In this document: piece after piece, positions 12,430-62,306 of the stretch
Layout: each line of letters opens with the position of its first letter
Position numbering within the stretch: position 1 is the first letter of the stretch
Origin: Nematopogon swammerdamellus
Lineage: Eukaryota; Arthropoda; Insecta; Lepidoptera; Adelidae
Assembly: GCA_946902875.1 (NCBI GenBank)
Contig: OX336345.1
Span: forward strand, 69,501-133,500
DNA length: 64,000 nucleotides
Reading direction: 5' to 3'
Made by a program: the position numbers and the translations under genes
Notes under the pieces: model-generated
What the model saw: the letters and a program-made list of their open reading frames with translations, nothing else
The model's database searches: none
What the model was told of the DNA's origin: nothing

Positions 12430-15400
12430 CAGCAACCGTAAATGCGTGAGCTCTGGTGTGTGAGATGTATCTAGTGAGCGGAGTGACAGTGCGAGCGGTG
12501 TGCCGATGTGGCAGGTGGACAACACCAACAGATACATAAAGAAGAGAGAGGGCGGTGCGAGGGTAAATGCGTGAGCTCTGGTGTGTGTGATGTATCTTGA
12601 TAGTGAGCGGAGTGACAGTGCGAGCGGTGTGCCGATGTGGCCGGTGGACAACACCCACAGATACATAGAGAAGAGAGAGGGCGGTGCGAGGACAAATGCG
12701 TGAGCTCTGGTGTGTGAGATGTATCTTGATAGTGAGCGGAGTGACAGTGCGAGCGGTGTGCCGATGTGGCGGGTGGACAACACCAACAGATACATAGTGA
12801 AGAGAGAGGGCGGTGCGAGGGTAAATACGTGAGCTCTGGTGTGTGTGATGTATCTCGATAGTGAGCGGAGCGACAGTGCGAGCGGTGTGCCGATGTGGCA
12901 GGTGGACAACACCAACAGATACATAGAGAAGAGAGAGGGCGGTGCGAGGACAAATGCGTGAGCTCTGGTGTGTGAGATGTGTCTTGATAGTGAGCGGAGT
13001 GACAGTGCGAGCGGTGTGCCGATGTGGCAGGTGGACAACACCAACAGATACATAGAGAAGAGAGAGGGCGGTGCGAGGACAAATGCGTGAGTTCTGGTAT
13101 GTGAGATGTGTCTTGATAGTGAGCGGAGTGACAGTGCGAGCGGTGTGCCGATGTGGCAGGTGGACAACACCAACAGATACATAGAGAAGAGAGTAGGCGG
13201 TGCGAGGACAAGTGCGTGAGCTCTGGTGTGTGAGATATATCTTGATAGTGAGCGGAGTGACAGTGTGAGCTGTGTGCCGATGTGGCAGGTGGACAACACC
13301 CACAGATACATAGAGAAGAGAGAGGACGGTGCGAGGGTAAATGCGTGAGCTCTGGTGTGTGAGATGTATCTTGATAGTGAGCGGAGTGACAGTGCGAGCG
13401 GTGTGCCGATGTGGCAGGTCAACAACACCAACAGATACATAGAGAAGAGAGAGGGCGGTGCGAGGGTAAATGCGTGAGCTCTGGTCTGTGTGATGTATCT
13501 TGATAGTGAGCGGAGTGACAGTGCGAGCGATGTGGAAGGTGGACAACACCCACAGATACATAGAGAAGAGAGAGGGTGGTGCGAGGGTAAATGCGTGAGC
13601 TCTGGTCTGTGTGATGTATCTTGTTAGTGAGCGGAGTGACAGTGCGAGCGGTGTGCCGATGTCGCAGGTGGACAACACCAACAGATACATGGAGAAGAGA
13701 GAGGGCGGTGCGAGGGTAAATGCGTGAGCTCTGGTCTGTGTGATGTATCTTGTTAGTGAGCGGAGTGACAGTGCGAGCGGTGTGCCGATGGGGCAGGTGG
13801 ACGACACCAACAGATACATGGAGAAGAGAGAGGGCGGTGCGAGGGTAAACGCGTGAGCTCTGGTCTGTGTGATGTATGTTGATAGTGAGCGGAGTGACAG
13901 TGCGAGCGGTGTGCCGATGTGGCAGGTGGACAACATCAACATATACATAGAGAAGAGAGAGGGCGGTGCGAGGGTAAATGCGTGAGCTCTGGTCTGTGTG
14001 ATGTATGTTGATAGTGAGCGGAGTGACAGTGCGAGCGGTGTGCCGATGTGGCAGGTGGACGACATCAACATATACATAGAGAAGAGAGAGGGCGGTGCGA
14101 GGGTAAATGCGTGAGCTCTGGTCTGTGTGATGTATGTTGATAGTGAGCGGAGTGACAGTGCGAGCGATGTGGCAGGTGGACAACATCAACATATACATAG
14201 AGAAGAGAGAGGACGGTGCGAGGGTAAATGCGTGAGCTCTGGTGTGTGAGATATATCTTGTTAGTGAGCGGAGTGACAGTGTGAGCTGTGCCGATGTGGC
14301 AGGTGGACAACACCCACAGATACATAGAGAAGAGAGAGGACGGTGCGAGGGTAAATGCGTGAGCTCTGGTGTGTGAGATGTATCTTGATAGTGAGCGGAG
14401 TGACAGTGCGAGCGGTGTGCCGATGTGGCAGGTGAACAACACCAACAGATACATAGAGAAGAGAGAGGGCGGTGCGAGGGTAAATGCGTGAGCTCTGGTC
14501 TGTGTGATGTATCTTGATAGTTAGCGGAGTGACAGTGCGAGCGGTGTGCCGATGTGGCAGGTGGACAACACCCACAGATACATAGAGAAGAGAGAGGGCG
14601 GTGCGAGGGTAAATGCGTGAGCTCTGGTCTGTGTGATGTATCTTGTTAGTGAGCGGAGTGACAGTGCGAGCGGTGTGCCGATGGGGCAGGTGGACGACAC
14701 CAACAGATACATGGAGAAGAGAGAGGGCGGTGCGAGGGTAAATGCGTGAGCTCTGGTCTGTGTGATGTATCTTGTTAGTGAGCGGAGTGACAGTGCGAGC
14801 GGTGTGCCGATGTGGCAGGTGGACAACACCAACATATACATAGAGAAGAGAGAGGGCGGTGCGAGGGTAAATGCGTGAGCTCTGGTCTGTGTGATGTATG
14901 TTGATAGTGAGCGGAGTGACAGTGCGAGCGGTGTGCCGATGTGGCAGGTGGACAACATCAACATATACATAGAGAAGAGAGAGGGCGGTGCGAGGGTAAA
15001 TGCGTGAGCTCTGGTCTGTGTGATGTATGTTGATAGTGAGCGGAGTGACAGTGCGAGCTGTGTGCCGATGTGGCAGGTGGACAACACCAACAGATACATA
15101 GAGAAGAGAGAGGACGGTGCGAGGGTAAATGCGTGAGCTCTGGTCTGTGTGAGATGTATCTTGTTTGTGAGCAGAGTGACAGTGCGAGCGGTGTGCCGAT
15201 GTGGCAGGTGGACAACACCAACAGATACATAAAGAAGAGAGAGGGCGGTGCGAGGGTAAATGCGTGAGCTCTGGTCTGTGTGAGATGTATCTTGTTAGTG
15301 AGCAGAGTGACAGTGCGAGCGGTGTGCCGATGTGGCAGGTGGACAACACCAACAGATTCATAGAGAAGAGAGAGGACGGTGCGAGGGTAAATGCGTGAGC

Positions 15401-16748
15401 TCTGGTCTGTGTGAGATGTATCTTGTTAGTGAGCGGAATGACAGTGCGAGCGGTGTGCCGATGTGGCAGGTGGACAACACCAACAGATACATAGAGAAGA
15501 GAGAGGGCGGTGCGAGGGTAAATGCGTGAGCTCTGGTCTGTGTGATGTATCTTGATAGTGAGCGGAATGACAGTGCGAGCGGTGTGCCGATGTGGCAGGT
15601 GGACAACACCATCAGATACATAGAGAAGAGAGAGGGCGGTGCGAGGGTAAATGCGTGAGCTCTTGTCTGTGTGATGTATGTTGTTAGTGAGCGGAGTGCC
15701 GATGTGGCAAGTGGACAACACCCACAGATACATATAGAAGAGAGAGGACGGTGCGAGGGTAAATGCGTGAGCTCTGGTCTGTGTGATGTATCTTGTTAGT
15801 GAGCGGAGTGACCGTGCGAGCGGTGTGACGATGTGGCAGGTGGACAACACCAACAGATACATAGAGAAGAGAGAGGGTGGTGCGAGGGTTAATGCGTGAG
15901 CTCTGGTCTGTGTGAGATGTATGTTGTTAGTGAGCGGAGTGACAGTGCGAGCGGTGTGCCGATGTGGCAGGTGGACAACACCAACAGATACATAGAGAAG
16001 AGAGAGGGCGGTGCGAGGGTAAATGCGTGAGCTCTGGTCTGTGTGAGATGTATCTTGTTAGTGAGCGGAGTGACAGTGCGAGCGGTGTGCCGATGTGGCA
16101 GGTGGACAACACCCACAGATACATAGAGAAGAGAGAGGGCGGTGCGAGGGTAAATGCGTGAGCTCTGGTCTGTGTGATGTATCTTGATAGTGAGCGGAGT
16201 GACAGTGCGAGCGGTGTGCCGATGTGGCAGGTGGACAACACCAACAGATACATAGAGAAGAGAGAGGGTGGTGCGAGGGTAAATGCGTGAGCTCTTGTCT
16301 GTGTGATGTATGTTGTTAGTGAGCGGAGTGACAGTGCGAGCGGTGTGCCGATGTGGCAGGTGGACAACACCCACAGATACATAGAGAAGAGAGAGGACGG
16401 TGCGAGGGTAAATGCGTGAGCTCTGGTCTGTGTGATGTATGTTGTTAGTGAGCGGAGTGACAGTGCGAGCGGTGTGCCGATGTGGCAGGTGGACAACACC
16501 AACAGATACATAGAGAAGAGAGAGGACGGTGCGAGGGTAAATGCGTGAGCTCTGGTCTGTGTGATGTATCTTGTTAGTGAGCGGAGTGACAGTGCGAGCG
16601 GTGTGCCGATGTGGCAGGTGGACAACACCCACAGATACATAGAGAAGAGAGAGGACGGTGCGAGGGTAAATGCGTGAGCTCTGGTCTGTGTGAGATGTAT
16701 CTTGTTAGTGAGCGGAGTGACAGTGCGAGCGGTGTGCCGATGTGGCAG
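12430..16748 (+). repeat. 129-131 bp tandem array (33 copies) built on the acceptor of the next SMC3 exon
   Basis: Thirty-three copies precede the real exon start at 16749, which serves as the 34th unit. Each has gatgtggcag followed by GTGGACAAC.., copying the end of the intron and the start of the real exon (GTGGACAAGATCAACGAG). Unit starts occur at 12515, 12644, 12773, 12902 and so on to 16618. After 48 nt most units have a donor-like AGG/gtaaat, then a TGA 12 nt later. Most copies keep the AG; a few lost it (12773 reads cgg, 15711 reads caa). Long open frames on the minus strand across the array result from its periodicity and are not genes. Confidence 0.95.
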
Positions 16749-16916
16749 GTGGACAAGATCAACGAGTTCCTGCGCACTATCGAGGAGCGGCTGAAGACGC
16801 TGGAGGAGGAGAAGGAGGAGCTGAAGGAGTACCAGCGCTGGGACAAGTCGCGCCGCGTCCTCGAGTTCATCATCCACGACACCGAGCATCGAGACAACAA
16901 GAAGAAACTTGAAGAG
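16749..16916 (+). CDS. SMC3: SMC3 exon (start of coiled coil)
   Basis: 56 codons in phase 0 lie between acceptor tgtggcag and donor gtacct. The translation runs VDKINEFLRTIEERLKTLEE, then EKEELKEYQRWDKSRR, matching SMC3 residues about 186-241, the beginning of the descending coiled coil (heptad pattern with E/K at outer positions). Its first 30 or so bases are the template of the 131-bp array upstream. The exon ends with KKLEE and continues with LERLRSS in the exon at 20884. There are 33 competing acceptors upstream, so use of this one in transcripts should be confirmed. Confidence 0.92.
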
Positions 16917-17047: not shown

Positions 17048-18522
17048 CTGTTGCCCGCGGCTTCGCTCGCGTGAAATTCGTATTCCAAAGAAGAATGTAA
17101 GTAACTAAGGGCGAGGCCGAAGACCGAGCTGCGTTCAGGTAATCGATAAACCTTCTCAAAGAAAGTAACTAACTAAGGGCGGGGCCGAAGGCCGAGCTGC
17201 TTTCAGGTAAACGATAAACCTTTCTCAAATAAAGGAAGTAATTAAGGGCGAGGCCGAAGGCCGAGCTGCGTTCAGGAAGACGATAACCCTTCTGGAAGAA
17301 AGGAAGGAACTAAGTGCGAGGCCGAAGACCGAGCTGCGTTCAGGTAAACCGAAAACCCTCTTCCGCCTTCGGGCCTCGCCCTTAAATACTTCCTTTCTTC
17401 GATAGAATATAATATCGTTTACTCAATCGATTTATTTCATAAAAATAAAAAAGTAATATTAATAACTAAAGAATTAAAACCTACCTAACAAACATTAAAA
17501 TAACTATCAAAACTGGCATTTTCAAATGTTCTTAGAGCACTTGCGGCATTACCCCGCTGCATGGCAAGGCTTACCCTTTGAATGAAGTACATAAGCCCTT
17601 GATGGCGGGACACCAGTTGCGTCAACCAGCAGAGGCCCAAGCCTCTTTTGGCTTCACTGCTCCACGGACCGAGGGTTTCAACCGCAAACGCAACAAATTC
17701 GAAATCTTGAATTATATTTCTATATTTGTTGCGTTTGAGGCTCTCCGCCCCAGCCTTGGCCGCGCCAGCCGCTCTTGAAGATGTCCTAACATGACTTGGA
17801 GCCAATGTGAGAACACAAGTGGCGTCCCACATCAAAGAACTACCCTTAGTCCATGGCACTAAGGTCATAGCATTGGGCCTCTTGCCATCTAGCCGGGAAT
17901 AACCGCGAGGTTCTAGGATGCACGGTATATTTGCCGTGAGAAGCGTGGACTTTATAATAAAATTTAAATTAAATTAACTCAATCTTAATATTAATTAACT
18001 TTATTCGAGATGGTTTAGCTTCTTCCTGAACGCAGCTCGGCCTTCGGCCTCACCCTTAGTTACTTGCTTTCTTCGAGATGGTTTATCATTTGTCAGAACG
18101 TAGCTCGGCCTTCGGCCTCGCCTTAGTTACTTACTTTCTTCAAAAATGTTTACCTTCTTCCTGAACGCAGCTCGGCCTACGGCCTCGCCCTTAGTTACTT
18201 GCTTTCGTCGAGATGGTTTATGGTTTTCCCGAATAGAGCACGGCCTTCGGCCTCGCCCTTAGTTACTTACTTTCATCAAGATGGTTTACCTTCTTCCTAA
18301 ACGAAGCTCGGCCTTCGGCCTCGCCCTTAGTTACTTGCTTTCTTCGAGATGGTTTTTCAATTGTCAGAACGTACTCGGCCTTCGGCCTCGCCTTAGTTAC
18401 TTACTTTCCTCAAGATGGTTTATCTTCTTCCTGAACGCAGCTCGGTCTGCGGCCTCGCCCATAGTTACTTACTTTCTTTTTTTGAAATACGAATTTCACG
18501 CGAGCGAAGCCGCGGGCAACAG
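17048..18522. mobile_element. Foldback-like element with tandemly repeated inverted arms
   Basis: The outer ends are an inverted repeat of about 36 bp (ctgttgcccgcggcttcg at 17048; its complement ends at 18522). Inside, the left arm (about 17095-17340) holds about four 64-69 bp units with cgaggccgaag..gagctgcgttcagg. The right arm (about 18000-18480) holds about seven units of the same sequence in the opposite orientation. The middle (17440-17990) contains a retroelement-like protein fragment on the minus strand. Long inverted arms made of short direct repeats are the known architecture of foldback elements. Confidence 0.7.
17485..17868 (-). pseudogene. Retroelement-type C-terminal fragment (AVETLGPWS family)
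   Basis: The minus-strand frame includes FVAFAVETLGPWSSEAKRG and FIQRVSLAMQRGNAASALRT. The same arrangement is at 57900-58150 (FAVETLGAWSPD, FIRRISLEIQRGNAISVLGT). The motif resembles C-terminal tails I associate with invertebrate retroelement polymerases, but I cannot name the class. It is a fragment, carried in the centre of the foldback-like element. Confidence 0.4.
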
Positions 18523-19925: not shown

Positions 19926-19949
19926 CAACCCAACGGAGCCTGCCATGCG

Positions 19950-20142
19950 GCCATCTTACATCCAGTACAGTGGTACCAACCCAGTCGGCTACAATTTGAG
20001 CCTACCACCTAGCAAGGGGCAAGGGAAGGGACCTACAGTTTTACAGCGGCTCCGAACGGTGAAGCAGCAGGTGGAGGTATGCACGTACTTTTTTTCGTCA
20101 GAAAAAACTCATTGGTACACCGACCGGATTCGAACCTCGGCT
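19950..20142. mobile_element. Partial SINE related to the 19300 copy
   Basis: The sequence shares gtggtaccaacc, cctaccacc.ag.aag and gggaagggacctacagtttt with the 5S-type SINE copies but lacks the 5S-like head. It ends directly against the first unit of the 133-bp array with a ggattcgaacctcgg piece that resembles a tRNA box B. Confidence 0.4.
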
Positions 20143-20883
20143 CGGCTACTCCACAACGCCATCAGTGAGCCCATCGCGCCTTGTTGATGTGCAAACTGAA
20201 CTGGAGTTAACTTTGCAGCTGGAGCGACTGCGCTCGAGCAGTGGCAAGGAGCAGCCTGCAGCAGTATACCTAGCTAGGCTACTCCACAACGCCATCAGTG
20301 AGCCCGTCGCGCCTTGTTGATGTGCAAACTGAACTGGAGTTAACTTTGCAGCTGGAGCGACTGCGCTCGAGCAGTGGCAAGGAGCAGCCTGCAGCAGTAT
20401 ACCTAGCTAGGCTACTCCACAACGCCATCAGTGAGCCCGTCGCGCCTTGTTGATGTGCAAACTGAACTGGAGTTAACTTTGCAGCTGGAGCGACTGCGCT
20501 CGAGCAGTGGCAAGGAGCAGCCTGCAGCAGTATACCTAGCTAGGCTACTCCACAACGCCATCAGTGAGCCCGTCGCGCCTTGTTGATGTGCAAACTGAAC
20601 TGGAGTTAACTTTGCAGCTGGAGCGACTGCGCTCGAGCAGTGGCAAGGAGCAGCCTGCAGCAGTATACCTAGCTAGGCTACTCCACAACGCCATCAGTGA
20701 GCCCGTCGCGCCTTGTTGATGTGCAAACTGAACTGGAGTTAACTTTGCAGCTGGAGCGACTGCGCTCGAGCAGTGGCAAGGAGCAGCCTGCAGCAGTATA
20801 CCTAGCTAGGCTACTCCACAACGCCATCAGTGAGCCCGTCGCGCCTTGTTGATGTGCAAACTGAACTGGAGTTAACTTTGCAG
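20143..20883 (+). repeat. 133-bp tandem array (5 extra copies) on the acceptor of an SMC3 exon
   Basis: Copies start their exon-like part at 20219, 20352, 20485, 20618 and 20751; the real exon is at 20884. All have period 133. Each includes intron sequence, the acceptor gttaactttgcag, and about 36-50 bases of exon. After GGAGCAG they diverge (cctgcagcagtat versus CAGCAATATGCAG). Copies are nearly identical to each other, suggesting recent expansion or homogenisation. Reading through a copy meets TGA after about 33 codons, so they cannot be used as coding extensions. Confidence 0.95.
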
Positions 20884-20975
20884 CTGGAGCGACTGCGCTC
20901 GAGCAGTGGCAAGGAGCAGCAGCAATATGCAGAGATGGTGAAGGAAGCGCAGGACAACGTGAAGGAAGCCAATCG
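20884..20975 (+). CDS. SMC3: SMC3 exon (coiled coil)
   Basis: 30 codons plus two bases (CG) lie between acceptor aactttgcag and donor gtgagc. The translation LERLRSSSGKEQQQYAEM, then VKEAQDNVKEAN, is the coiled-coil segment following KKLEE of the previous exon (about residues 242-272). The split arginine codon CG/G is completed by the exon at 35014. The intron that follows is 14 kb long and filled with repeats. The five upstream copies of the acceptor would put a stop in the frame if chosen. Confidence 0.9.
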
Positions 20976-32910: not shown

Positions 32911-33700
32911 AAAAGTAGGGTTCCGTAACACGTTTATGTCTGTCCATTCTACTAAGTTCTGCAAAATGAATGTAGGGTTCCGTAACAAATGCATGTCTGT
33001 CCGTTCTACTAAATTTTACAGAATTTTTTTTTTATTATTTTTTTTTTCATAATTATTTTTTTTAATATATAATTTTTTTTTTCATTATTTTTATTTTTTA
33101 AATTTTTTTTAAATCTTTATAAATAAACTTAAAACTTAAACTTTTATTTTTTTTTAAGCAATGTTACGGTGTTTTCACTTCTGCCGGCACTCCCGGAGTG
33201 CACCTGAGGCTTTTGTTTGGTAGGTCATACTTCAGAGGTGGTCCCATTTCAATTTCATCGAAATTGATTGAGCGGTTTATGAAAAATCAACATAATATTA
33301 TGGTGTGTGGTTACCTTCAGCAAAACTTGTGATGTGGTCGTTTTCAGCAATTTTCAGTTTGATAAATTAGTATGGTGTGTGGTTACCTTCAGCAAAACTT
33401 TTGTGATGTGGACTTATTCAGCAATTTGCAGTCTGACACATATGGCGAATAATTCTGTACCACTTCAATCGATTTCGATTATTCAATTTAGATTATTCTT
33501 TTTTATGTAATATTACTAAAAAGAATGAAATAAAAATTTTTAAAATATAAAACTGACTACCAAAAAAAAAAAAAAAACTAGAACTAAAAAGTATTAAATA
33601 CCTAATATTTTGAAATTTTCTCTGTCCTATTGAAATACATGAATCGATATACTAGTGATACATATTCGGACCCTTGTTTCATGAATATTCTAAATTTGAA
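32911..33700. repeat. Interspersed and low-complexity repeats
   Basis: 32917-33020 has two gggttccgtaac monomers. 33030-33150 is a T-rich then A-rich low-complexity tract. 33300-33440 has two ~72-bp copies containing ggtgtgtggttaccttcagc. 33540-33600 contains an A run. No gene is seen. Confidence 0.5.
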
Positions 33701-35013: not shown

Positions 35014-35167
35014 GAAACTGAAGGAAGCGAGGAAGGATGTAGCAGCGACCAAAGAGGAGAAGGACGTTCTCTCGACGGAACAACAGCAGCTTCTGCGAGA
35101 GAAGACCAAGCTCGAGTTGGCCATCAAGGACTTGACCGACGATGTCGATGGTGACAATAAGTCTAAG
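35014..35167 (+). CDS. SMC3: SMC3 exon (coiled coil)
   Basis: One base completing CGG (Arg) plus 51 codons lie between acceptor ggcgacag and donor gtacat. The translation KLKEARKDVAATKEEKDVLS, EQQQLLREKTKLELAIKDLT, DDVDGDNKSK corresponds to about residues 273-323. The run REKTKLELAIKDLTDD parallels the RTKLELKAKDLQDE of vertebrate SMC3. The exon lies at the end of a 14-kb repeat-filled intron. Its own boundaries are not duplicated. Confidence 0.9.
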
Positions 35168-35833: not shown

Positions 35834-36200
35834 TATGATAATAAAGTATTTGGCGGCATCTCTAGTTGGTGGCAGTCTGGCAAGTAGACATTTGGGCTTC
35901 GCCACGACTGGAAAAAATGCGGTATCTCAGCTCTTCGAGATTGTCAATTTCGATGGCCCCTCCCTACAGTTTCACAAGGAATTTCTCTCCAACGTCAGCG
36001 ATTTGAGTTGGAGTTGCCTCGGGGTCTTTAAAAATCGCCAACATCTCTAAAAGGCTAGGGTTCTTGCTATACATCTGCATCACCTTTTTTCCAATACCAA
36101 AGGGTGCTGAGGTCGTGTCACACCCACTTATCGCATGCAGGAAAAGAATATCCTATGGTTCGTACTTCAACGGAACGAGTGAGATGAACACAGTACAGTT

Positions 36201-37719
<1,519 letters not shown>

Positions 37720-39045
37720 AGACGTGGTATAGGAGGAATGGGGCGGGAGGGGGAATGGGGAGAGGTAAGGAGGGGGATGGGGAGCGGAAGGGAGGGGAGC
37801 GGGAAGGGGAGAGAGAGCGAGGGAGGAAAGGAGAGCGAGGGAGGACGAGCGAGAGACGAAAGGAGAGAGAGAGAGAAAGAGCGAGGGAGAGGGAGAGCGA
37901 GGGAGGAAGGGAGAGAGAAGTAGGAAGGGAAAAAGAGAGAGCGAGGGAGGAAGGGAGAGAGAGAGAAAGAGCGCGAGGGAGGAAGGGAGAGAGAGAGAGA
38001 GTGAGAGCGAGGGGGGAAGGGAGAGAGAGAGTGAGAGCGAGGGGGGAAGGGAGAGAGAGAGTGAGAGCGAGGGGGGAAGGGAGAGAGAGAGCGAGGGGGG
38101 AAGGGAGACAGAGAGCGAGAGCGAGGGGGGAAGGGAGACAGAGAGCGAGGGGGAAGGGGGAGAGAGAGAGCGAGAGCGAGGGGGAAGGGAGAGAGAGAGA
38201 GAACGAGGGGGAAGGGAGAGAGAGAGAGAGATAGAGAGAGCGAGGAGGGAAGGGAGAGAGAGAGCGAGAGCGAGGGGCGAAGGGAGAGAGAGAGAGAGAG
38301 AGCGCGAGGGGAGAAGGGAGAGAGAGAGAGCGAGGGATGAAGGGAGAGAGAGATAGCGAGGGGGGAAGGGAGAGAGAGAGCGCGAGGGGAGAAGGGAGAG
38401 AGAGAGAGCGAGGGATGAGGGGAGAGAGAGAGAGAGCGAGGGATGAAGGGAGAGAGAGAGAGAGCGAGGGAGGAAGGGAGAGAGAGAGCGAGGGAGGAAG
38501 TGAGAGAGAGAGAGCGAGGGAGGAAGTGAGAGAGAGAGAGCGAGGGAGGAAGGGAGAGAGAGAGCGAGGGAGGAAGGGAGAGAGAGAGAGAGCGAGGGAG
38601 GAAGGGAGTGAGAGAGAGAGCGGGGAGGAAGGGAGAGAGAGAGAGAGAGCGAGGGAGGAAGGGAGAGAGAGATAGAGCGAGGGAGGAAAGGAGAGAGAGA
38701 GTGAGGGAGGAAGGGAGAGAGAGAGAGAGAGCGAGGGAGGAAGGGAGAGAGAGAGAGAGAGCGAAGGAGGAAGGGAGAGAGAGAGAGAGAGCGAGGGAGG
38801 AAGGGAGAGAGAGATAGAGCGAGGGAGGAAAGGAGAGAGAGAGAGAGAGAGCGAGGGAGGAAGGGAGAGAGAGAGAGCGCGAGGGAGGTAGGGATAGAGA
38901 GAGAGAGAGAGCGAGGGAGGAAGGGAGAGAGAGAGAGCGCGAGGGAGGAAGGGATAGAGAGAGAGAGAGAGAGCGAGGGAGGAAGGAGAGAGATAGAGAG
39001 CGAGGGAGGAAGGGGAAGAGAGAGAGAGAAGAAGAGTGAGAGACT
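37720..39045 (+). repeat. 1.3-kb polypurine minisatellite
   Basis: Nearly all + strand bases are A or G. The degenerate unit of about 25-35 bp has the form gagagagagcgagggaggaag. It ends at ctgcgagcgaagtcacggct, a variant of the interspersed repeat end seen at 37570. The long open frames on both strands (a Ser/Leu/Pro repeat and an Arg/Glu repeat) are consequences of composition. Confidence 0.9.
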
Positions 39046-39514: not shown

Positions 39515-39724
39515 ATCTCTAAACAAGCAGATAAAGGACAAAAAAGACCATGAGACCAAGCTTCGCGACGACCTAAAGCGTGATGCCAGCAAACTGACCG
39601 AGCTGGAGCGCCGCATCGAGGAGACCACGACAGAGATGGAGCGGCAGCGCATCGCCATCGACGAACACAATAAGCAGTACTACGAGTGTAAGAAGAGGAA
39701 GGACCAGGAGCAGAGCTCCAGGAA
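39515..39724 (+). CDS. SMC3: SMC3 exon (coiled coil)
   Basis: One base completing AAA plus 69 codons plus two bases (AA) lie between acceptor cccttttccag and donor gtaagt. SLNKQIKDKKDHETKLRDDL, KLTELERRIEETTTEMERQR and NKQYYECKKRKDQEQSSR match about residues 401-470, parallel to SLDQAINDKKRQI...RKYYEVKNKKDELQSER of vertebrate SMC3. The last 131 bases and the donor are duplicated 23 times downstream. Copies later in the array mostly carry a TAG (cagtagcag) where this exon has cag-gag-cag, which marks this one as the working copy. Confidence 0.93.
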
Positions 39725-42700
39725 GTAAGTATCACTCTCTACATTAATAAGCTGACGGAGTTGGAGCACTGCATCGGGGAGGTCACGACGGAGATGGAGC
39801 GGAAGCGCATCGTCATAAATGAACAAAACAAGCAGTACTACGAGTGTAAGAAGAGGAAGGACCAGTACCAGAGCTCCAAGAAGTAAGTATCACTCTCTAC
39901 ATTACTAAGCTGACGGAGTTGGAGCACTGCATCGGGGAGATCACAACGGAGATGGAGCGGAAGCGCATCGCCATCGACGAACACAATAAGCAGTACTACG
40001 AGTGTAAGAAGAGGAAGGACCAGTAGCAGAGCTCCAGGAAGTAAGTATCACTCTCTACATTAATAAGTTAACGGAGCTGGAGCACTGCATCGGGGAGATC
40101 ACGACGGAGATGGAGCGGAAGCGCATCGTCATCAATGAACACAACAAGCAGTACTACGAGTGTAAGAAGAGGAAGGACCAGGAGCAGAGCTCCAGGAAGT
40201 AAGTATCACTCTCTACATTAATAAGCTGACGGAGTTGGAGCACTGCATCGGGGAGATTACGACGGAGATGGAGCGGAAGCGCATCGCCATCGACGAACAC
40301 AATAAGCAGTACTACGAGTGTAAGAAGAGGAAGGACCAGTAGCAGAGCTCCACGAAGTAAGTATCACTCTCTACATTAATAAGCTGACGGAGTTAGAGCA
40401 CTGCATCGGGGAGATCACGACGGAGATGGAATGGAAGCGCATCGTCATCAATGAACACAACAAGCAGTACTACGAGTGTAAGAAGAGGAAGGACCAGTAG
40501 CAGAGCTCCAGGAAGTAAGTATCACTCTCTACATTAATAAGCTGACAGAGCTGGAGCGCCGCATCGAGGAGACCACGACGGAGATGAAGCGGCAGCGCAT
40601 CGCCATCGACGAACACAATAAGCAGTACTACGAGTGTAAGAAGAGGAAGGACCAGGTGCAGAGCTCCAGGAAGTATCACTCTCTACATTAATAAGCTGAC
40701 GGAGTTGGAGCACTGCATCGGGGAGATCACGAAGGAGATGGAGCGGAAGCGCATCGCCATCAATGAACACAACAAGCAGTACTACGAGTGTAAGAAGAGG
40801 AAGGACCAGTAGCAGAGCTCCAGGAAGTAAATATCACTTTCTACATTAATAACCTGACGGAGTTGGAGCACTGCATCGAGGAGACCACGACGGAGATGGA
40901 GCGGCAGCGCATCGCCATCGACGAACACAATAAGCAGTACTACGAGTGTAAGAAGAGGAAGGACCAGTAGCAGAGCTCGAGGAAGTAAGTATCACTCTCT
41001 ACATTAATAAACTGACGGAGTTGTAGCACTGCATCGGGGAGATCACGACGGAGATGGAGCGGAAGCGCATCGTCATCAATGAACACAACAAGCAGTACTA
41101 CGAGTGTAAGAAGAGGAAGGACCAGTAGCAAAGCTCCAGGAAGTAAGTATCACTCTCCACATTAATACACTGACGGAGTTGGAGCACTGCATCGAGGAGA
41201 CCACGACGGAGATGGAGCGGCAGCGCATCAGCATCGACGAACACAATAATCAGTACTACGAGTGTAAGAAGAGGAAGGACCAGTAGCAGAGCTCCAGGAA
41301 GTTAGTATCACTCTCTACATTAATAAGCTGACGGAGTTGGAGCACTGCATCGGCGAGATCACGACGGAGATGGAGCGGCAGCGCATCGCCATCGACGAAC
41401 ACAATAAGCAGTACTACGAGTGTAAGAAGAGGAAGGACCAGTAGCAGTGCTCCAGGAAGTAAGTATCACTCTCTGCATTAATAAGCTGACGGAGTTGGAG
41501 CACTGCATCGGGGAGATCACGACGGAGATGGAGCGGAAGCGCATCGTCATCAATGAACACAACAAGCAGTACTACGAGTGTAAGAAGAGGAAGGACCAGG
41601 AGCAGAGCTCTAGGAAGTAAGTATCACTCTCTACATTAATAAGCTGACGGAGTTGGAGCACTGCATCGGGGAGATCACGACGGAGATGGAGCGGAAGCGC
41701 ATCGTCATCAATGAACACAACAAGCAGTACTACGAGTGTAAGAAGAGGAAGGACCAGTAGCAGAGCTCCAGGAAGTAAGTATCACTCTCTACATTAATAA
41801 GCTGACGGAGTTGGAGCACTGCATCGGGGAGATCACGACGGAGATGGAGCGGAAGCGCATCGCCATCAATGAACACAACAAGCAGTACTACGAGTGTAAG
41901 AAGAGGAAGGACCAGGAGCAGAGCTCCAGGAAGTAAGTATCACTCTCTACATTAATAAGCTGACGGAGTTGGAGCACTGCATCGGGGAGATCACGACGGA
42001 GATGGAGCGGAAGCGCATCGTCATCAATGAACACAACAAGCAGTACTACGAGTGTAAGAAGAGGAAGGACCAGTAGCAGAGCTCCAGGAAGTAAGTATCA
42101 CTCTCTACATTAATAAGCTGACGGAGTTGGAGCACTGCATCGAGGAGTTCACGACGAAGATGGAGCGGAAGCGCATCGTCATCAATGAACACAACAAGCA
42201 GTACTACGAGTGTAAGAAGAGGAAGGACCAGGAGCAGAGCTCTAGGAAGTAAGTATCACTCTCTACATTAATAAGCTGACGGAGTTGGAGCACTGCATAG
42301 GGGAGATCACGACGGAGATGGAGCGGAAGCGCATCGTCATCAATGAACACAACAAGCAGTAATACGAGTGTAAGAAGAGGAAGGACCAGGGGCAGAGCTC
42401 AAGGAACTAAGTATCACTCTCTACATTAATAAGCTGACGGAGTTGGAGCACTGCATCGGGGAGATCACGACGGAGATGGAGCGGCAGCGCATCGCCATCG
42501 ACGAACACAATAAGCAGTACTACGAGTGTAAGAAGAGGAAGGACCAGTAGCAGACCTCCAGGAAGTAAGTATCACTCTCTACATTAATAACCTGACAGAG
42601 TTGGAGCACTGCATCGGGGAGATCACGACGGAGATGGAGCGGAAGCGCATCGTCATCAATGAACACAACAAGCAGTACTACGAGTGTAAGAAGAGGAAGG

Positions 42701-43360
42701 ACCAGTAGCAGAGCTCCAGGAAGTAAGTATCACTCTCTACATTAATAAGCTGACGAAGTTGGAGCACTGCATCAGGGAGATCACGACGGAGATGGAGCGG
42801 AAGCGCATCGCCATCAATGAACACAACAAGCAGTACTACGAGTGTAAGAAGAGGAAGGACCAGTAGCAGAGCTCCAGGAAGTAAGTATCACTCTCTACAT
42901 TAATAAGCTGATGGAGTTGGAGCACTGCATCGGGGAGATCACAACGGAGATGGAGCGGAAGCGCATCATCATCAATGAACACAACAAGCAGTACTACGAG
43001 TGTAAGAAGAGGAAGGACCAGTAGCTGAGCTCTAGGAAGTAAGTATCACTCTCTACATTAATAAGCTGACGGAGTTGGAGCACTGCATCGGGGAGATCAC
43101 GACGGAGATGGAGCGGAAGCGCATCGCCATCAATGAACACAACAAGCAGTACTACGAGTGTAAGAAAAGGAAGGACCAGTAGCAGAGCTCCAGGAAGTAA
43201 GTATCACTCTCTACATTAATAAGCTGACGGAGTTGGAGCACTGCATCGGGGAGATCACGACGGAGATGGAGCGGAAGCGCATCATCATCAATGAACACAA
43301 CAAGCAGTACTACGAGTGAGTGTAAGAAGAGGATGGACCAGGAGCAGAGATCCAGGAAGT
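39725..43360 (+). repeat. 158-bp tandem array (23 copies) of an SMC3 exon 3' end with its donor
   Basis: Donor-like gtaagtatcactctctac recurs with period 158 (39725, 39883, 40041, 40199, 40357 ...). The last exon end is at 43358, and 43359 minus 39725 equals exactly 23 periods. Each unit is 27 bp of intron (ending in attaataag) plus 131 bp copied from the exon (CTGACGGAGTTGGAG... AGCTCCAGGAA). Variants alternate along the array (GCCATCGACGAACACAATAA versus GTCATCAATGAACACAACAA; cag-tag-cag versus cag-gag-cag). One unit (about 40670) lacks gtaa, and the last has an inserted gtga. Confidence 0.96.
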
Positions 43361-43545
43361 AATTATTAATTAGTATTAAGTTAATTATTTTTATCATCAG
43401 AAGATGCTGTCGAAGAGTATGAAAAACATGCTTCCGAAGTCACCACGGAGGAGTGGCATAAATGTTTTCAAAATTGGTTTATGCGTATGAAAAAGAGCTG
43501 ACATCACGGCTGCAGTAGCTGGATTATGTTTGCTTTTCTGTTCAG

Positions 43546-43645
43546 TGAGCTGTGGCGCAAAGAGACTTCGCTTTCTCAAAACCTGTCATCGCTGAAGGAA
43601 GATCTGGCTAAGGCTGATCAAGCCTTGAGGTCCATGGCGGGGAAG
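43546..43645 (+). CDS. SMC3: SMC3 exon (coiled coil before the hinge)
   Basis: One base completing AAT (Asn) plus 33 codons lie between acceptor tttctgttcag and donor gtgagt. ELWRKETSLSQNLSSLKEDL, AKADQALRSMAGK matches about residues 471-503 (vertebrate [20 protein letters not shown]...RAATGK). This is the end of the descending coiled coil just before the hinge. The frame agrees with the exons at 39515 and 55197, which skips the whole 158-bp array. Confidence 0.92.
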
Positions 43646-46900: not shown

Positions 46901-47510
46901 CAACAGATGGATAGATCTCACCGAGACCTAAAGTTTGAGTACCAACACGATGGGTCTAGCACCAGTGGTTCTCGAGTTATGACCAAAACAAAAGTTCATG
47001 TGACAGATGGATAGATCTCACCGAGACCTGAAGTTTGAGTACCAACACGATGGGTCTAGCACCAGTGGTTCTCGAGTTATGACCAAAACAAAAGTTCATG
47101 TGACAGATGGATAGATCTCACCGAGACCTGAAGTTTGAGTACCAACACGATGGGTCTAGCACCAGTGGTTCTCGAGTTATGACCAAAACAATAGTTAATG
47201 TGACAGATGGATAGATCTCATCGAGACGTTCAGATTGAGTACCAACACGATGGGTCTAAGTCCATTGGTTCTCGAGATATGACCAAAACAAATTATCACG
47301 TGATAGATGGGTAGATCTCATCGAGACGTTCAGTTTGAGTACCAACACGATGGGTCTAAGTTCAGTGGTTCTCGAGATATGACCAAAACAAATTATCACG
47401 TGACAGATGGGTAGATCTCACCGAGACGTTCAGTTTGAGTACCAACACGATGGGTCTAAGTCCAGTGGTTCTGTAGATATGACCAAAACTAATGATCACG
47501 TGACAGATGA
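46901..47510 (+). repeat. 100-bp minisatellite, 6 copies
   Basis: Copies begin near 46911, 47011, 47111, 47211, 47311 and 47411 (atagatctca or gtagatctca) with period exactly 100. The unit contains gagtaccaacacgatgggtc and a gttctcgag(t/a)tatgacc segment. The first three copies are almost identical; the last three form a second subtype (gacgttcag). Confidence 0.9.
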
Positions 47511-55196: not shown

Positions 55197-55343
55197 CCGA
55201 TCCTGAACGGGCGCGACAGTGTGCGGAAGGTTCTGGACACGTTCCTGGAGCGGGGCGGGGAGTGGGCTCGCATAGCCAACTCCTACTACGGACCTGTCAT
55301 AGAGAACTTCACTTGCGAGAAGGCAATATATGTCGCAGTTGAG
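55197..55343 (+). CDS. SMC3: SMC3 exon (start of hinge)
   Basis: 49 codons in phase 0 lie between acceptor gttggttccag and donor gtaaat. PILNGRDSVRKVLDTFLERG, SYYGPVIENFTCEKAIYVAV matches about residues 504-552 (vertebrate [20 protein letters not shown]...[21 protein letters not shown]). This begins the hinge domain, through which SMC3 pairs with SMC1 and where DNA entry is thought to occur. The exon joins in frame to VTAGNRLF at 56217. Both its boundaries are free of duplications. Confidence 0.93.
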
Positions 55344-56183: not shown

Positions 56184-56662
<479 letters not shown>

Positions 56663-58152: not shown

Positions 58153-58680
58153 GAGAGGCAGCCAAACAATCCAAACGCAAATTGAGTCAAAAGAAGTTGC
58201 TTGTCAGTGTATGGTGGACCTGTGCCGGCATTATTCATTACAACTTCTTGATACCTGGCGCAATAATTACTGCAGATGTGTACTGTGAAGAATTGAAAAT
58301 AACGATGGATAAGCTCGATGTCAAACAACCGAAACTTGCCAATTGCTCTAGTCCACTCCTTCTTCACGACAAAGCTCGCCCACACACCGCACAATGGACC
58401 GTCTCAAAACTACGGGAGTTACGACTGCAAACTCTCCGTCAACCACCATATTCACCAGACCTTGCTCCAACTGCTTTCCATTTTTTTCGAAATTTGGATA
58501 ACTTTTTACAGGGGAAAAATTTCAAATCCGATGAGGCAGTGAAAAACGCCTTTAAAGAGTTAATCGATTCCCATCCCCAGGATTTCTATAGCAGAGGGAT
58601 CAATGAACTTTCAGTAAAATGGCAAAAGTGCATTGATAATAATGGCCAATACTTCGATTAAAAAAATATATATTTTTCAT
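58153..58680 (+). pseudogene. Mariner transposase, C-terminal part
   Basis: KRKLSQKKLLVSVWWTCAGI, LLHDKARPHTAQWTVSKL and PPYSPDLAPTAFHFFRNLDN are mariner-family motifs containing the second (HDKARPH context) and third (YSPDLAP) catalytic region of the DD34D type. The first catalytic Asp region and N-terminal helix-turn-helix are missing, and the 5' side abuts the retroelement fragment at about 58152. The frame then runs to TAA at about 58659. TIRs were not found. Nonfunctional. Confidence 0.75.
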
Positions 58681-58740
58681 TATAAAATTTTTTTTGATTT
58701 TTTCCATATAAAGCGCCAATTTGACATGACTCTGGAGATG

Positions 58741-60830
58741 ACTTTTATTTTATGTATGATAGTGCTCTTTTCTCTATTTCCTCTTTGATGGTCGGCGCCT
58801 CAAGGTACTCGTGAATCTCCTCGTTCCTGGCGAACCAAGGTGCACTACTGATACACCGCAGGGCTTTATTCTGAAACCGCTGCAGAATTTCCACATTGGA
58901 TGTACCAGCCCCACAGCTCTATACCATACGTCCACATTTGTTTTAGTATGCTTTTGTAGACAGTGATTTTGTTGAATAATGACAGTTTCGATTGTTTTCC
59001 AAGCAGCCAATACATTTTGTTGTAGCTTAAGTTGAGTTAGTGTTTATGTGAGTTTTCTAGTGCAGTCCTCTATCTAAGTGACAGTCGAGATATTTAACGC
59101 TGATTTTGTGTGGTAACGTTTCACCTTTTTTTATTTTGAATAGTAGCCCCTTATGCCAGACACGCTCGAATGCCTGTTGGAGGTCGAGAAACACTGCAGA
59201 GCAGTACTCCTTTTTCTCATATGTATGTCGTATCTGCTGCACGATTCGGTGCACCTGCTCTATGGTCGAATGATGTGAGCGGAAGCCAAATTGGTGATCT
59301 GGTATTAAGCTTCTCTCTTCCATCAATGGTTTTAGACGGAGTTAAAAGACAGTTTTTTTTATTGAAATCGCGACATATGGCGCCGAGCCACCTATAAGAT
59401 GTCTAACGACGCCCATGGACACTCGGTCGTATGCGGGGGTTGCGAATGCCATGCCGGCCTGACAGGTGCCCATTCACGCCCCTCTTGAAGGATCCGAGAT
59501 TGTACTTGGGGGGGAATATATGAGCAGGGAGAGCGTTCCAGAGTTTACCGGTTCTGTAGAGGAAAGATCTGCAGAATCGATTGGTACGCGTCCGCGGTAA
59601 GTCCAGCGTATAGGAATGCAATCCCTGCCCAGTGCGTGTGGTGCGGAGGTGGAAAGGGGACGGCGGAATTTTGTTAAACAGCTCCTCCGAGCACTCCCCA
59701 TGGAATAATCGATAGAACACACTTAGGGAGCCGACATCCCTACGGTGTTGCAGTGGTTCTAGATCGCGGGACACTTCGGGGTCACCCACTAGTCGCACGA
59801 CTCGACGCTGGATCGAGTCCAAAGGCGCAAGCTGGTATTTGGTAGAGCCATCCCACAGGTGCGAGCAGTACTCCAAGCAGGACCTGATCTGCGATTTATA
59901 CAAAAGCAGCTTTTGGTCCGGCGTGAAGTACCGTCGCACCTTATTGAGTATGCCCAGCTTTTTAGAAGCCAGCTTGACCTTCCCCTCGATATGGCGACGA
60001 ATTTTTAGGTCGTGCGACAGTTCGACTCCGAGGAGCCAGTACAGTCTGGAACAATTTCGACAACAGGGGAAGAAGACGTATGGGCCGATACGAAGTAACC
60101 TCATTTATAGGTTTGCCTTCCTTGTGAATCATATTCATTTGGGAGAGTTTCTACAGATGTGGAAAGTACTGTAGTCTTAGTATAGAGTTATAAAATATGA
60201 CAAGAAACACCACTCCCTTTCTTGGAAGCTTTTTGAGTACTTCACCCGTTATCAGATCAAAACCTGGGGCCTTTTTTTTCTAAGCTTTTTATTACACTTA
60301 TTAGTTCTTTGACAGTGATCGGTTTAAGTGGAAGTGATCACTTTTTAGAAATCGGTCAATCTCATCTTCCTTTGCGTTGTCTGTTCCCTCATTTGGCTTA
60401 AAAACATTTTCAAGATGTTTTCCGAAGATCTCCACCTTCTCTTTAGGACTTCTAGCCCACGTGTTATCTGCTTTTCTGAGTGGTGGTATTGTTTGCAGTA
60501 TATTACTGCAATTGCTAATGGACCCTCCCAGTTGTCAATTGAAATGGAACTGGCTTGCAAGTAATCACGCCGATATTCGCACAATTCATGGTGTTTTATG
60601 CAGTTTCTAATTATTACCGCTGTTCCTCCGTGGGCAGTGCCATCTGGATGGTTTGAGAAGTAGCAAGAGTAGTCTTTTAAAGTAAAACTGCTTTTGTCTG
60701 TCAGATGTGTTTCTGACAGTAGTAGGATATCAAGCATGTGTGTCGTCACCAATAGTTCTACCTCATGTTGGTTGTGTGCTAGACCATTGATGTTCCAAGC
60801 GGCAATTCTTAGGTTATTTATGAATTTTAC
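58741..60830 (-). mobile_element. Jockey LINE with nested CR1-like insertion
   Basis: From 60830 downward, minus strand: endonuclease start (THMLDILLLSETHLTDKSSF, HPDGTAHGGTAVIIRN), a gap, KKAPGFDLITGEVLKKLP, FPHLWKLSQMNMIHKEGKPI, EVTSYRPIRLLPLLSKLFQ, then insertion 59349-60038, then RLKPLMEERSLIPDHQFGFR, SAVFLDLQQAFERVWHKGLL, a deletion over the YxDD region, and KMYWLLGKQSKLSLFNKITV with WTYGIELWG. Several stops and frameshifts are present. Confidence 0.8.
59349..60038 (-). mobile_element. CR1-like LINE (second type) 3' fragment inside Jockey
   Basis: The frame at 59403-60036 reads LLGVELSHDLKIRRHIEGKV, YFTPDQKLLLYKSQIRSCLE, EYCSHLWDG, SIQRRVVRLVGDPEV, FLYRTGKLWNALPAHIFPPK. It is related to but distinct from the family at 62671. 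Poly(A) tail at 59349-59358. acagt borders both sides and is the likely target duplication. Jockey reads SKLFQ on one side and RLKPLMEER on the other. Confidence 0.8.
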
Positions 60831-60839
60831 TTACAAGCA

Positions 60840-61292
60840 TTGTAATTTAGGCTAACTAGGTTGCCTATTTGATTTACTAGAGTATAATTTTTTTCTGATT
60901 GTGCTAATAATATTTTCTCTAGAGTATTTGTTGGTTGAGATATTTCTTCGTCTCTGGGTTTCTCCGCTGCGTCAGCGTAGCTGTTCTTTGCTGGCTTTTT
61001 GGGGACATTGGCTCGGCCTGTGCCTTTTAGCGTGTTTGGATAATCTGAGGATTTTTGTTGAGCAGTGGCTCTTCGACCTTGTCTTTGAGTCTTTCTGGCA
61101 AGTATTTCTTTGTAGATTTCTTTGTACTTATCTGTCTCTGTTGAGATATTCAGTGTCAGTTTTTGACTTTTGTATTTGGGCTTGAGGGGTGTGCATCCAC
61201 TGACACATTCCCATTGTCTTTCAGTGCTGTAGCAGGTCCTGGGGCATGATACTTATAAGCGCTTTGTATAAAAATAAATGTAAATGTTACAG
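60840..61292. other. Intron, no gene seen
   Basis: T-rich intron up to the acceptor at 61292. A weak TTG/CTG-rich stretch (60940-61180) may be the start of the LINE but has no recognisable motif. Confidence 0.35.
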
Positions 61293-61451
61293 AACGCCAT
61301 AGCGATGGTAAGCAAGCTGAAGTACGATACCAAGTACGCAAAGGCGATGAAGTACATATTCGGCAAGACCCTCATCTGCCGTAACCTGGAGTTCGCCACC
61401 GAGCTCGGCAAGCAGTTCCATCTCGACTGCGTCACGCTCGAGGGAGATCAG
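61293..61451 (+). CDS. SMC3: SMC3 exon (hinge)
   Basis: 53 codons in phase 0 lie between acceptor aatgttacag and donor gttggt. NAIAMVSKLKYDTKYAKAMK, YIFGKTLICRNLEFATELGK, QFHLDCVTLEGDQ matches about residues 606-658. GKTLICR.. and CVTLEGDQ are conserved in SMC3 hinges. The donor gttggt is weaker than the others. The last ~95 bases and the donor are repeated downstream; the first copy starts a changed gcaagatcttcatctgc so it lacks the KTL sequence of this exon. Confidence 0.95.
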
Positions 61452-61776
61452 GTTGGTGCTCCTTATATTCGGCAAGATCTTCATCTGCCGTAACCTGGAG
61501 TTCGCGACCGAGCTCGGCAAGCAGTTCCATCTCGACTGCGTCACGCTCGAGGGAGATCAGGTTGGTGCTCCTTATATTCGGCAAGATCTTCATCTGCTGG
61601 AACCTGGAGTTCGCCACCGAGCTCGGCAAGCAGTTCTATCTCGACTGCGTCACGCTCGAGGGAGATGAGTTGGTGCTCCTTATATTCGGCAAGATCTTCA
61701 TCTGCTGGAACCTGGAGTTCGCCACCGAGCTCGGCAAGCAGTTCCATCTCGACTGCGTCACGCTCGAGGGAGATCA
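61452..61776 (+). repeat. 109-bp tandem array (3 copies) of an SMC3 exon 3' end with its donor
   Basis: Exon-like ends gagggagatca(g) followed by (g)ttggtgctcc occur at 61451 (real), about 61560, about 61669 and about 61777. The unit is ~14 bp of intron (gttggtgctccttat) plus ~95 bp of exon. Two copies changed ctgccg to ctgctgg, and the third copy lost a base (gagatgag), so later copies have no correct donor. Reading through the real donor reaches TAA within 14 codons. Confidence 0.92.
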
Positions 61777-61864
61777 AACTGGTATCTTCCATATTATTCG
61801 GGCACTGGGGCTGGATAGAAAATGAAACACCACTCGAAAACGTTTTACTAATTAAAATAACTAC

Positions 61865-62306
61865 GTACATGAGCTGGGTGTGTGAGGTGTCGTCGAAGGG
61901 CTCTCTCACGGGCGGGTACTTCAACAACACGCGCTCGCGGCTGGAGATGCAGAAGTTAGATCGCATTTATGTTGAGAGAAGAGGTAATGTCACTTGATAC
62001 ATATGTACATGAGCTGGGTGTGTCAGGTGTCGTCGAAGGGCTCCCTCACGGGCGGGTACTTCAACAACACGCGCTCGCGGCTGGAGATGCAGAAGTTAGA
62101 TCGAATTTATGTTGAGAGAAGAGGTAATGTCACTTGATACATATGTACATGAGCTGGGTGTGTCAGGTGTCGTCGAAGGGCTCCCTCACGGGCGGGTACT
62201 TCAACAACACGCGCTCGCGGCTGGAGATGCAGAAGTTAGATCGCATTTATGTTGAGAGAGGAGGTAATGTCACTTGATACATATGTACATGAGCTGGGTG
62301 TGTCAG
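61865..62306 (+). repeat. 140-bp tandem array (3 copies) on the acceptor of an SMC3 exon
   Basis: Exon-like starts GTGTCGTCGAAGGGCTC at 61887, 62027 and 62167; the real exon is at 62307. Period is exactly 140. Each has acceptor gagctgggtgtgtcag (the first reads gtgtgag) and 69 bases of exon up to ATGCAGAAG. Then diverges with ttagatcg(c/a)atttatgttg and a donor-like agag/gtaatg. A TGA follows in frame. Confidence 0.95.

What the first reader, a model, noticed from the sequence alone, without database searches (positions are those of the whole stretch)
12430..62306. Six SMC3 splice junctions each seeded their own tandem array
Seen directly: around six different SMC3 exons, a segment spanning the exon/intron boundary is tandemly repeated with a different period each time (131, 133, 120, 158, 109, 140 bp). 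Four arrays extend from acceptors and two from donors. The units share no sequence except that each copies its own junction, so they arose independently. Only the junction-proximal copy keeps a full reading frame. One gene with six independent boundary duplications is far beyond what I would expect from random minisatellite birth, and suggests either a local process that duplicates 100-160 bp at splice junctions or selection or tolerance for such copies in this gene. Published models of intron gain by tandem duplication of segments with AG/GT sites are related, but arrays of this kind on existing junctions of one gene are not something I know described.
Basis: partly seen in the sequence, partly recalled or inferred. 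Interest (0 to 1): 0.92.

Follow-up and report, generated by a model that had tools for sequence, protein, structure and literature searches.

The report
Moth SMC3 splice sites in tandem
In a moth's cohesin gene SMC3, six splice junctions have each been copied, exon end and intron end together, into their own row of 4 to 34 repeats, and predicted SMC3 proteins of two other moths show a similar habit at five exon ends, so exon edges seem to be a place where DNA duplicates and where splicing then hides the extra copies.

Summary
The window carries 12 exons of lepidopteran SMC3 in an intact frame. Six of 24 splice junctions (acceptors of exons c, e, g, m; donors of h, l) lie in tandem arrays of 109-158 bp units, each unit holding its own junction, with 4 to 34 copies. 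Of arrays with period 45 bp or more and at least 3 copies, the six that are not dispersed families all sit on SMC3 junctions; a shorter-period GAGA array is intronic. Decoy copies evolve like noncoding DNA, and using the nearest decoy would stop the protein in 5 of 6 cases. In 250 kb of the same genome strict arrays of this kind number 3, against 6 in 64 kb. Independently, 2 of 144 listed SMC3 homologues, both gelechiid moth gene models, contain tandem copies ending at exon ends f, g, h, l, m. Best reading: tandem duplication is seeded over exons, copies crossing a splice junction survive because splicing removes them, and survivors amplify as neutral minisatellites that lengthen introns. Whether SMC3 is a hot spot or one case of a genome-wide habit is unsettled: the whole-genome search did not complete. 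One weaker enrichment test gave P = 0.07.

The parts
7918..8076 (+). SMC3 exon a, no array
   Evidence: tblastn, splice sites
12099..12224 (+). SMC3 exon b, no array
12438..16763 (+). Array A1: 34 junction copies of a unit of mostly 129 bp with about 115 bp intron end and 14-15 bp start of exon c; AG kept in 31 of 34
16749..16916 (+). SMC3 exon c (functional copy of the A1 junction)
20140..20920 (+). Array A2: 6 junction copies, 133 bp unit, 97 bp intron + 36 bp exon e; copies identical except the ragged first
20884..20975 (+). SMC3 exon e (functional copy of the A2 junction)
35014..35167 (+). SMC3 exon f, no array here; its end is repeated in the Tuta absoluta gene model P0002
36198..36227 (+). 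Six GGTTA (arthropod telomere type) repeats joined directly to the outer end of array A3
36225..36755 (+). Array A3: 4 junction copies, 120 bp unit, 28 bp intron + 92 bp exon g
36664..36893 (+). SMC3 exon g (functional copy of the A3 junction)
39515..39724 (+). SMC3 exon h (functional donor is the first copy of A4)
39594..43366 (+). Array A4: 24 junction copies, 158 bp unit, 131 bp exon h + 27 bp intron; GT kept in 23 of 24; a TAG stop stands at one exon codon in 15 of the 23 decoys
43546..43645 (+). SMC3 exon i, no array
55197..55343 (+). SMC3 exon j, no array
56217..56375 (+). SMC3 exon k, no array
61293..61451 (+). SMC3 exon l (functional donor is the first copy of A5)
61356..61776 (+). Array A5: 4 copies, 109 bp unit, about 96 bp exon l + 13 bp intron; the third copy has a one-base deletion at the junction, the last has lost the GT
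61865..62375 (+). Array A6: 4 copies, 140 bp unit, 71 bp intron + 69 bp exon m
62307..62518 (+). SMC3 exon m (functional copy of the A6 junction)

Best explanation
These are locally born minisatellites seeded over exon edges. Step 1 (inferred): in this moth lineage a segment of about 100-160 bp that includes exon DNA is occasionally duplicated in tandem, most likely by filling in and joining a staggered break. Step 2 (inferred from pattern): duplications inside an exon would change the protein and are lost, whereas those that cross an acceptor or donor leave one complete exon, because splicing keeps using the exon-side copy; the others become intron. Step 3 (shown by divergence, mechanism inferred): once two copies exist, unequal exchange or slippage expands them to 4-34 copies and they decay as noncoding DNA. 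The effect is intron growth: introns b-c, h-i and l-m are about 95, 95 and 90% array. No function for the copies is needed. I think SMC3 shares this with other genes in principle but is hit more than average in Lepidoptera.
For: The exon-side copies join into one frame that aligns to solved SMC3 over residues 1-637. Four of six array periods (133, 158, 109, 140) are not multiples of 3, as expected if copies are spliced out. Decoys of A4: conservation 0.966, 0.972, 0.962 at codon positions 1, 2, 3; their consensus differs from the functional copy in 12 codons, 8 of them amino-acid changing (one to a stop) and 4 silent; GT 0.976 against 0.967 exon and 0.980 intron columns; A1: AG 0.953 against 0.961 intron columns. 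Neighbouring copies of A1 are more alike (0.042 against 0.052, 0 of 2000 shuffles); A4 shows closeness at lag 2 (P = 0.0085) though not at lag 1 (P = 0.92), as if pairs of units had been copied. Ages differ: functional copy against decoy consensus 100% in A2 and A3, 98.6% A6, 96.9% A1, 95.4% A5, 91.8% A4, so births or homogenisations were repeated. GC content alone does not predict the places: exon-touching windows are 14% of GC-rich windows, P = 8.5e-6 for 6 of 6 and 5e-5 for 6 of 7. Telomere repeats at the A3 edge fit a repaired break (PMC7215372 and PMC2246262, search listing, on mammals). Small duplications from staggered breaks are shown in mouse cells (PMC8355091, passages). Five more exon-end duplications in gelechiid SMC3 gene models.
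Against: The filter is inferred, not measured: no exon-internal duplicate was seen, which fits it but does not prove it. Nothing here identifies the break or the enzyme; in the mouse work one design used 43-bp overhangs and the paper speaks of insertions under 100 bp, smaller than these units. Only one side of each unit edge can be read; no long shared sequence is seen there, but in A2 the array bases after the edge resemble the exon after a 4-base offset, so microhomology is not excluded. Exon CpG is not depleted (observed/expected 0.98), so exon methylation as trigger is not supported. The fixed-segment test is not significant (P = 0.07). One intronic multi-copy array, the purine-rich GAGA array at 37809-39043, is also locus-specific. 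The gelechiid copies are gene-model predictions without DNA in hand; a gene finder could place exon starts artificially. No RNA data show which copy is spliced.
Confidence: 0.55

Rival explanations
1. A genome-wide habit of this moth (or of many moths): exon-edge arrays are common in all genes and SMC3 is simply a long gene in which they were noticed.
For: Locus-unique arrays of similar period exist elsewhere in this genome: L001 107 bp x14.5, L010 109 bp x4.7, L021 102 bp x6.7, L022 130 bp x3. L021:6666-7350 carries a donor-like GT at the same place in 3 of 7 units (GC in the other 4) and follows a stretch that looks like an exon, so it may be a second case. The clathrin search turned up a Papilio xuthus gene model with two internal repeats (P0159; 3 of the 120 listed proteins had repeats, the others from a sturgeon and a bat). 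The window was picked because it looked odd.
Against: Strict arrays are scarcer elsewhere: 3 in 250 kb against 6 in 64 kb (Poisson P = 1.5e-4, conditional P = 0.003; with 3 or more copies and any match 8 against 6, P = 0.018 and 0.048; all locus-unique arrays 16 against 9, P = 0.024 and 0.052). The L021 stretch has no Pfam or PDB match. Two of the 10 entries named as Lepidoptera in the SMC3 list show it, at five exon ends, in a search not chosen for it.
Confidence: 0.35
2. The copies are kept by selection: decoy splice sites or poison exons that slow or regulate SMC3 splicing.
For: Most decoy sites are intact (AG 31 of 34 in A1, GT 23 of 24 in A4, functional copy included) and nearest decoys would give a stop in 5 of 6. 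SMC3 is hit in two lepidopteran lineages.
Against: Splice dinucleotides are no more conserved than the rest of the unit in A1 and A4; one A5 copy has lost its GT; mostly different junctions are hit in the different moths (h and l donors are shared).
Confidence: 0.07
3. Assembly artefact: repeats made by the assembler at a few places.
For: A2 and A3 copies are identical or nearly so.
Against: A1, A4 and A5 decoys differ from the functional copy by 2-19%, with indels; the assembly has contigs of 20-31 Mb; gene models of two other moths show the same kind of thing.
Confidence: 0.03
4. Ordinary chance birth of GC-rich minisatellites.
For: Array junctions are GC-richer than others (0.56 against 0.46, P = 0.006). 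The intronic GAGA array is GC-rich and locus-specific.
Against: GC-rich intron windows are six times as many as GC-rich exon-touching ones yet hold only that one locus-specific array of 3 or more copies; P = 5e-5 for 6 of 7.
Confidence: 0.05

Closest known systems
[quoted passage not shown] review PMC3443670, passages)
   Same: One duplicated segment crosses an intron-exon boundary and carries its splice signals.
   Different: There it is one duplication that made a new intron; here arrays of 4 to 34 copies at six junctions of one gene, with exon joins collinear with SMC3 of other animals.
Internal tandem repeats at exon-intron boundaries of human genes in segmental duplications (PMC2812944, passages)
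   Same: Variable tandem repeats located at exon-intron boundaries, some spliced out.
   Different: Recently duplicated human genes; the passages I read mention no case of many independent arrays in one gene.
Minisatellites / VNTRs (recalled)
   Same: Unit size, head-to-tail order, local origin, similar copies.
   Different: Unusual birthplace: six on splice junctions of one gene.
Small tandem duplications from staggered breaks (PMC8355091, passages)
   Same: Plausible seed step: fill-in and end joining.
   Different: Shown in mouse cells at induced breaks with shorter overhangs; no link to exons.
Tandem (mutually exclusive) exon duplication (recalled)
   Same: Copies of exon sequence in tandem inside a gene.
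   Different: Each unit here holds only one splice site of its exon, so copies are not exons.

Membership tests
Minisatellite | head-to-tail units of roughly 10-200 bp, locus-specific | tested here: met
   periods 109-158 bp; no copies elsewhere in the window or in the 250-kb sample; the rest of the genome was not searched
Minisatellite | copy number varies between individuals | not testable with these tools
   one assembly only
[quoted passage not shown]
   each unit type contains its AG or GT
[quoted passage not shown]
   introns are lengthened and exon joins are collinear with SMC3, but intron positions were not compared between species
Tandem exon duplication | each copy has both acceptor and donor | tested here: not met
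   unit extents relative to the junction
Dispersed satellite or TE-borne array | same unit at other genomic places | tested here: not met
   0 other places for all six in window plus 250 kb, against 6 to 56 for the 66, 68, 74 and 100 bp arrays
SMC3 | collinear match over the covered part, hinge domain | tested here: met
   6wg3_B residues 91-727, E 1.7e-199; SMC_hinge E 2.2e-23
Selected alternative-splicing element | copies under constraint | tested here: not met
   no codon-position effect in A4, splice dinucleotides of A1 and A4 not above average; the four short arrays were not tested

The most novel reading that the evidence does not exclude
SMC3 is a recurrent, gene-specific hot spot in Lepidoptera where exon edges are duplicated again and again in separate lineages (window moth: six junctions; Phthorimaea operculella: four exon ends; Tuta absoluta: one), by a mutational process directed to spliced exon edges of this probably germline-active gene. 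This would be a mutation process that reads gene structure.
Probability: 0.3. Interest if true: 0.85.

Novelty: new variant of a known kind. Interest (0 to 1): 0.62.

Why it matters
It gives a countable natural record of how exon edges duplicate, how splicing shelters the copies, and how introns grow from exon-derived DNA. If SMC3 is special, it points to a mutational process tied to gene structure or germline transcription; if not, the same scan across moth genomes would measure a general but overlooked source of intron length and of wrong gene models.

Tried and rejected
Exon methylation as trigger: exon CpG observed/expected 0.98, no sign. GC content alone: rejected, though array junctions are GC-richer. 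G-rich coding strand (R-loops): A1 and A3 have strong GC skew (0.48, 0.43), A2 and A5 none (0.01, -0.08); P = 0.05 across junctions: not enough. TE or dispersed satellite origin: rejected for the six, true for the 66, 68, 74 and 100 bp arrays. A 30-bp exon at 20047-20076 (read) considered between c and e: dropped because c joins e collinearly with SMC3. The 48-bp repeat at 1191-1308 as a seventh case: not shown to be on a junction. BLAST for internal copies in proteins failed by design and was replaced by a direct self-comparison. Same unit start (YIFG) in A5 and in the P. operculella exon l copies: not used, because a gene finder could choose that start at an AAG codon. Clathrin heavy chain as a control gene: gelechiids are not named among the 120 listed, so it says little. 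A first junction count by fuzzy regex missed many A1 and A4 copies and was replaced by a sliding count. The first exon g start was one base off and was corrected.

Paper searches gave no description of such arrays in moths or in SMC3 in the titles and abstract starts listed; the lists were capped (20 of 85, 20 of 375, 10 of 24), and most subscription journals are not in that library. Passages of PMC10759296, PMC10257491 and PMC2395259 were also looked at and did not bear on the question further.

Rows set aside before counts: TRF rows overlapping a longer row; arrays of period under 45 (among them the GAGA array and an AT-rich 32-bp repeat at 33014-33109); dispersed-family arrays for the locus-unique counts; one ragged edge copy in each copy-distance test; the false fifth A3 match and the A5 copy at 61670, missed by the 20-base rule but found.
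Full report
WHAT IS THERE. Twelve exons (7918-62518, + strand) join into a 638-residue open frame that aligns end to end with SMC3: 52% identity and 4 gap positions to a recalled human sequence, and residues 1-637 against 91-727 of chain 6wg3_B of the Protein Data Bank, named SMC3, E 1.7e-199, with the SMC hinge found by Pfam. The first 90 residues and the part after about 727 were not found in the window. A tree of 15 SMC3 sequences places the window outside the clade of Papilio, Vanessa, Pararge, Leptidea, Spodoptera, Aphomia, Chilo and the two gelechiids (support 94), with a caddisfly further out (99), so the source is probably an early-branching moth; it rests on one gene and the species is unknown.

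THE ARRAYS. Six of the 24 junctions lie in arrays: acceptors of exons c (34 junction copies, mostly 129 bp), e (6, 133 bp), g (4, 120 bp), m (4, 140 bp) and donors of h (24, 158 bp) and l (4, 109 bp). Units hold exon and intron DNA in varying proportion, from about 15 exon + 115 intron bases (A1) to 131 + 27 (A4). Units are unrelated beyond 12-14 bp matches. The array lies on the intron side and the working junction is the exon-side copy, judged by the reading frame. Introns b-c (4311 of 4524 bp), h-i (3642 of 3821) and l-m (767 of 855) are mostly array; c-e (744 of 3967) and f-g (439 of 1496) in part.

MORE THAN CHANCE? Taking one unit as the seed, 6 of 15 arrays (period 45 or more) cover a junction against 0.54 expected, P = 7e-6; 6 of 9 with 3.5 or more copies, P = 3.5e-7. 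Comparing units with 200 kb and later 250 kb of the same genome showed that the 68 bp TE arms and the 66, 74 and 100 bp arrays of the window belong to dispersed families, while the six are found nowhere else in that sample. So 6 of 6 locus-unique arrays of period 45 or more and at least 3 copies are on SMC3 junctions; product of chances 1.2e-8; 6 of 9 if arrays of about 2 copies are included, P = 3.3e-7. The period cut matters: an intronic purine-rich GAGA array (37809-39043, period about 30) is also locus-specific, giving 6 of 7, P = 2.7e-8, and an AT-rich 32-bp repeat at 33014-33109 was not tested. Two weaker tests must be told: random placement of whole arrays gives P = 0.012, and fixed 100-bp segments give 6 of 24 against 34 of 286, P = 0.07; counted by repeat locus, with my own grouping, the latter becomes P = 5e-4.

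HOW THE COPIES BEHAVE. Against the decoy consensus the functional copy is 100% (A2, A3), 98.6% (A6), 96.9% (A1), 95.4% (A5) and 91.8% (A4) alike, so births or last homogenisations differ in age. In A4 the 131 exon bases differ at 13 places and the 27 intron bases at none; 8 of 12 changed codons change the amino acid, one to a stop, and that stop is in 15 of 23 decoys. Decoys of A4 show no codon-position effect, and AG (A1) or GT (A4) is not kept better than other columns. Adjacent A1 copies are more alike than random pairs; A4 copies are closer at lag 2 but not at lag 1, as if pairs of units had been copied. One A4 decoy is 97.4% like the functional copy, so exchange may still reach it. Using the nearest decoy would add 131, 133, 158, 109 or 140 bases and hit a stop in five arrays; in A3 it would add 40 residues in frame. 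So the copies look like neutral, spliced-out DNA; splicing itself was not observed.

OTHER MOTHS. A homology search with the window protein listed the best 120 of 2383 proteins, and one with Papilio SMC3 the best 120 of 3260, which added 24. Of these 144, two have internal tandem copies, P0001 of Phthorimaea operculella and P0002 of Tuta absoluta; they are 2 of the 10 entries named as Lepidoptera. Read by eye, every repeated block runs to the end of an exon of the window's map: g, h, l and m in the first, f in the second; automatic mapping places the ends within 0 to 6 residues of those exon ends, the larger gaps being diverged last residues or chance extension. These are gene models, so starts and copy numbers are uncertain, and models built with RNA evidence would hide such copies in other species. 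Still, the search was not chosen for it and puts the same gene in the same state in a second lineage, at mostly different junctions (h and l donors are shared).

IS SMC3 SPECIAL? In the 250-kb sample, locus-unique arrays with period 80 or more, 3.5 or more copies and 85% or more matches number 3, against 6 in the 64-kb window (Poisson P = 1.5e-4; conditional binomial 0.003). With looser cuts the contrast shrinks (3 or more copies, any match: 8 against 6, P = 0.018 and 0.048; all locus-unique arrays: 16 against 9, P = 0.024 and 0.052). The number of exons in the sample is not known, and of its locus-unique arrays only L010, L021 and L022 had frames scanned against Pfam. One sample array, L021:6666-7350, carries a donor-like GT at one place in 3 of 7 units and GC in the other 4, beside a stretch that looks like an exon but has no Pfam or PDB match: a candidate, not a case. 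The genome-wide search that would settle this did not complete.

MECHANISM. GC-rich intron windows outnumber GC-rich exon-touching ones six to one but hold one such array (GAGA) against six, so a seed tied to exons is needed, plus a filter that removes exon-internal events. One side of each unit edge can be read and shows no long shared sequence, with A2 ambiguous; this is compatible with end joining after fill-in, known for small tandem duplications in mouse cells (PMC8355091, passages), but does not prove it. Array A3 is broken off and capped by six GGTTA repeats; insertion of telomere repeats at repaired breaks is described for mammals (PMC7215372, PMC2246262, search listing only). Why exons are the seed is not known; methylation is not supported (CpG 0.98) and strand skew is mixed. 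Seed and filter are inferences; location, copy number, decay and reading-frame effects are shown.

KNOWN OR NEW. Single duplications across an intron-exon boundary (PMC4974935, abstract) and boundary repeats in human paralogues (PMC2812944, passages) are known kinds. Six independent arrays in one gene, and the same gene hit in another moth family, I did not find in the listings of eight searches. I rate it a new variant of a known kind.

Noticed in passing
window 36198-36227: Six GGTTA telomere-type repeats directly joined to the outer end of array A3; L001 shows the same motif (as CCTAA) abutting a 107-bp array near the start of its contig.
   Followed up: partly
window 17091-18478: A likely transposable element with 68-bp tandem arrays in both arms, in opposite orientation; the same 68-bp family occurs in L002, L012 and L019.
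   Followed up: partly
window 46903-47509: A 100-bp intronic array that belongs to a dispersed satellite also present in L011:9401-10000.
   Followed up: partly
window 37809-39043: A 1.2-kb purine-rich (93%) GAGA-type array in intron g-h with no match in the 250-kb sample.
   Followed up: partly
window 961-1320, - strand: A short open frame of a possible second gene (MDKMLVGSATRYIAG...) with a 48-bp repeat of 2.5 copies just upstream of its ATG.
   Followed up: partly
L021:6666-7350: A 102-bp array of 6.7 copies with a donor-like GT in 3 of 7 units beside a stretch that looks like an exon; candidate second junction array in this genome.
   Followed up: partly
L022:1-392: A 130-bp array of 3 copies abutting a helicase-like open frame (weak UvrD_C_2 match, below Pfam's cut-off).
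   Followed up: partly
protein P0159: Papilio xuthus clathrin heavy chain gene model with two internal tandem repeats (150 and 29 residues).
   Followed up: no
window 2650-4600: Sequence that reads like a retrotransposon open reading frame near the left end; judged by eye only.
   Followed up: no
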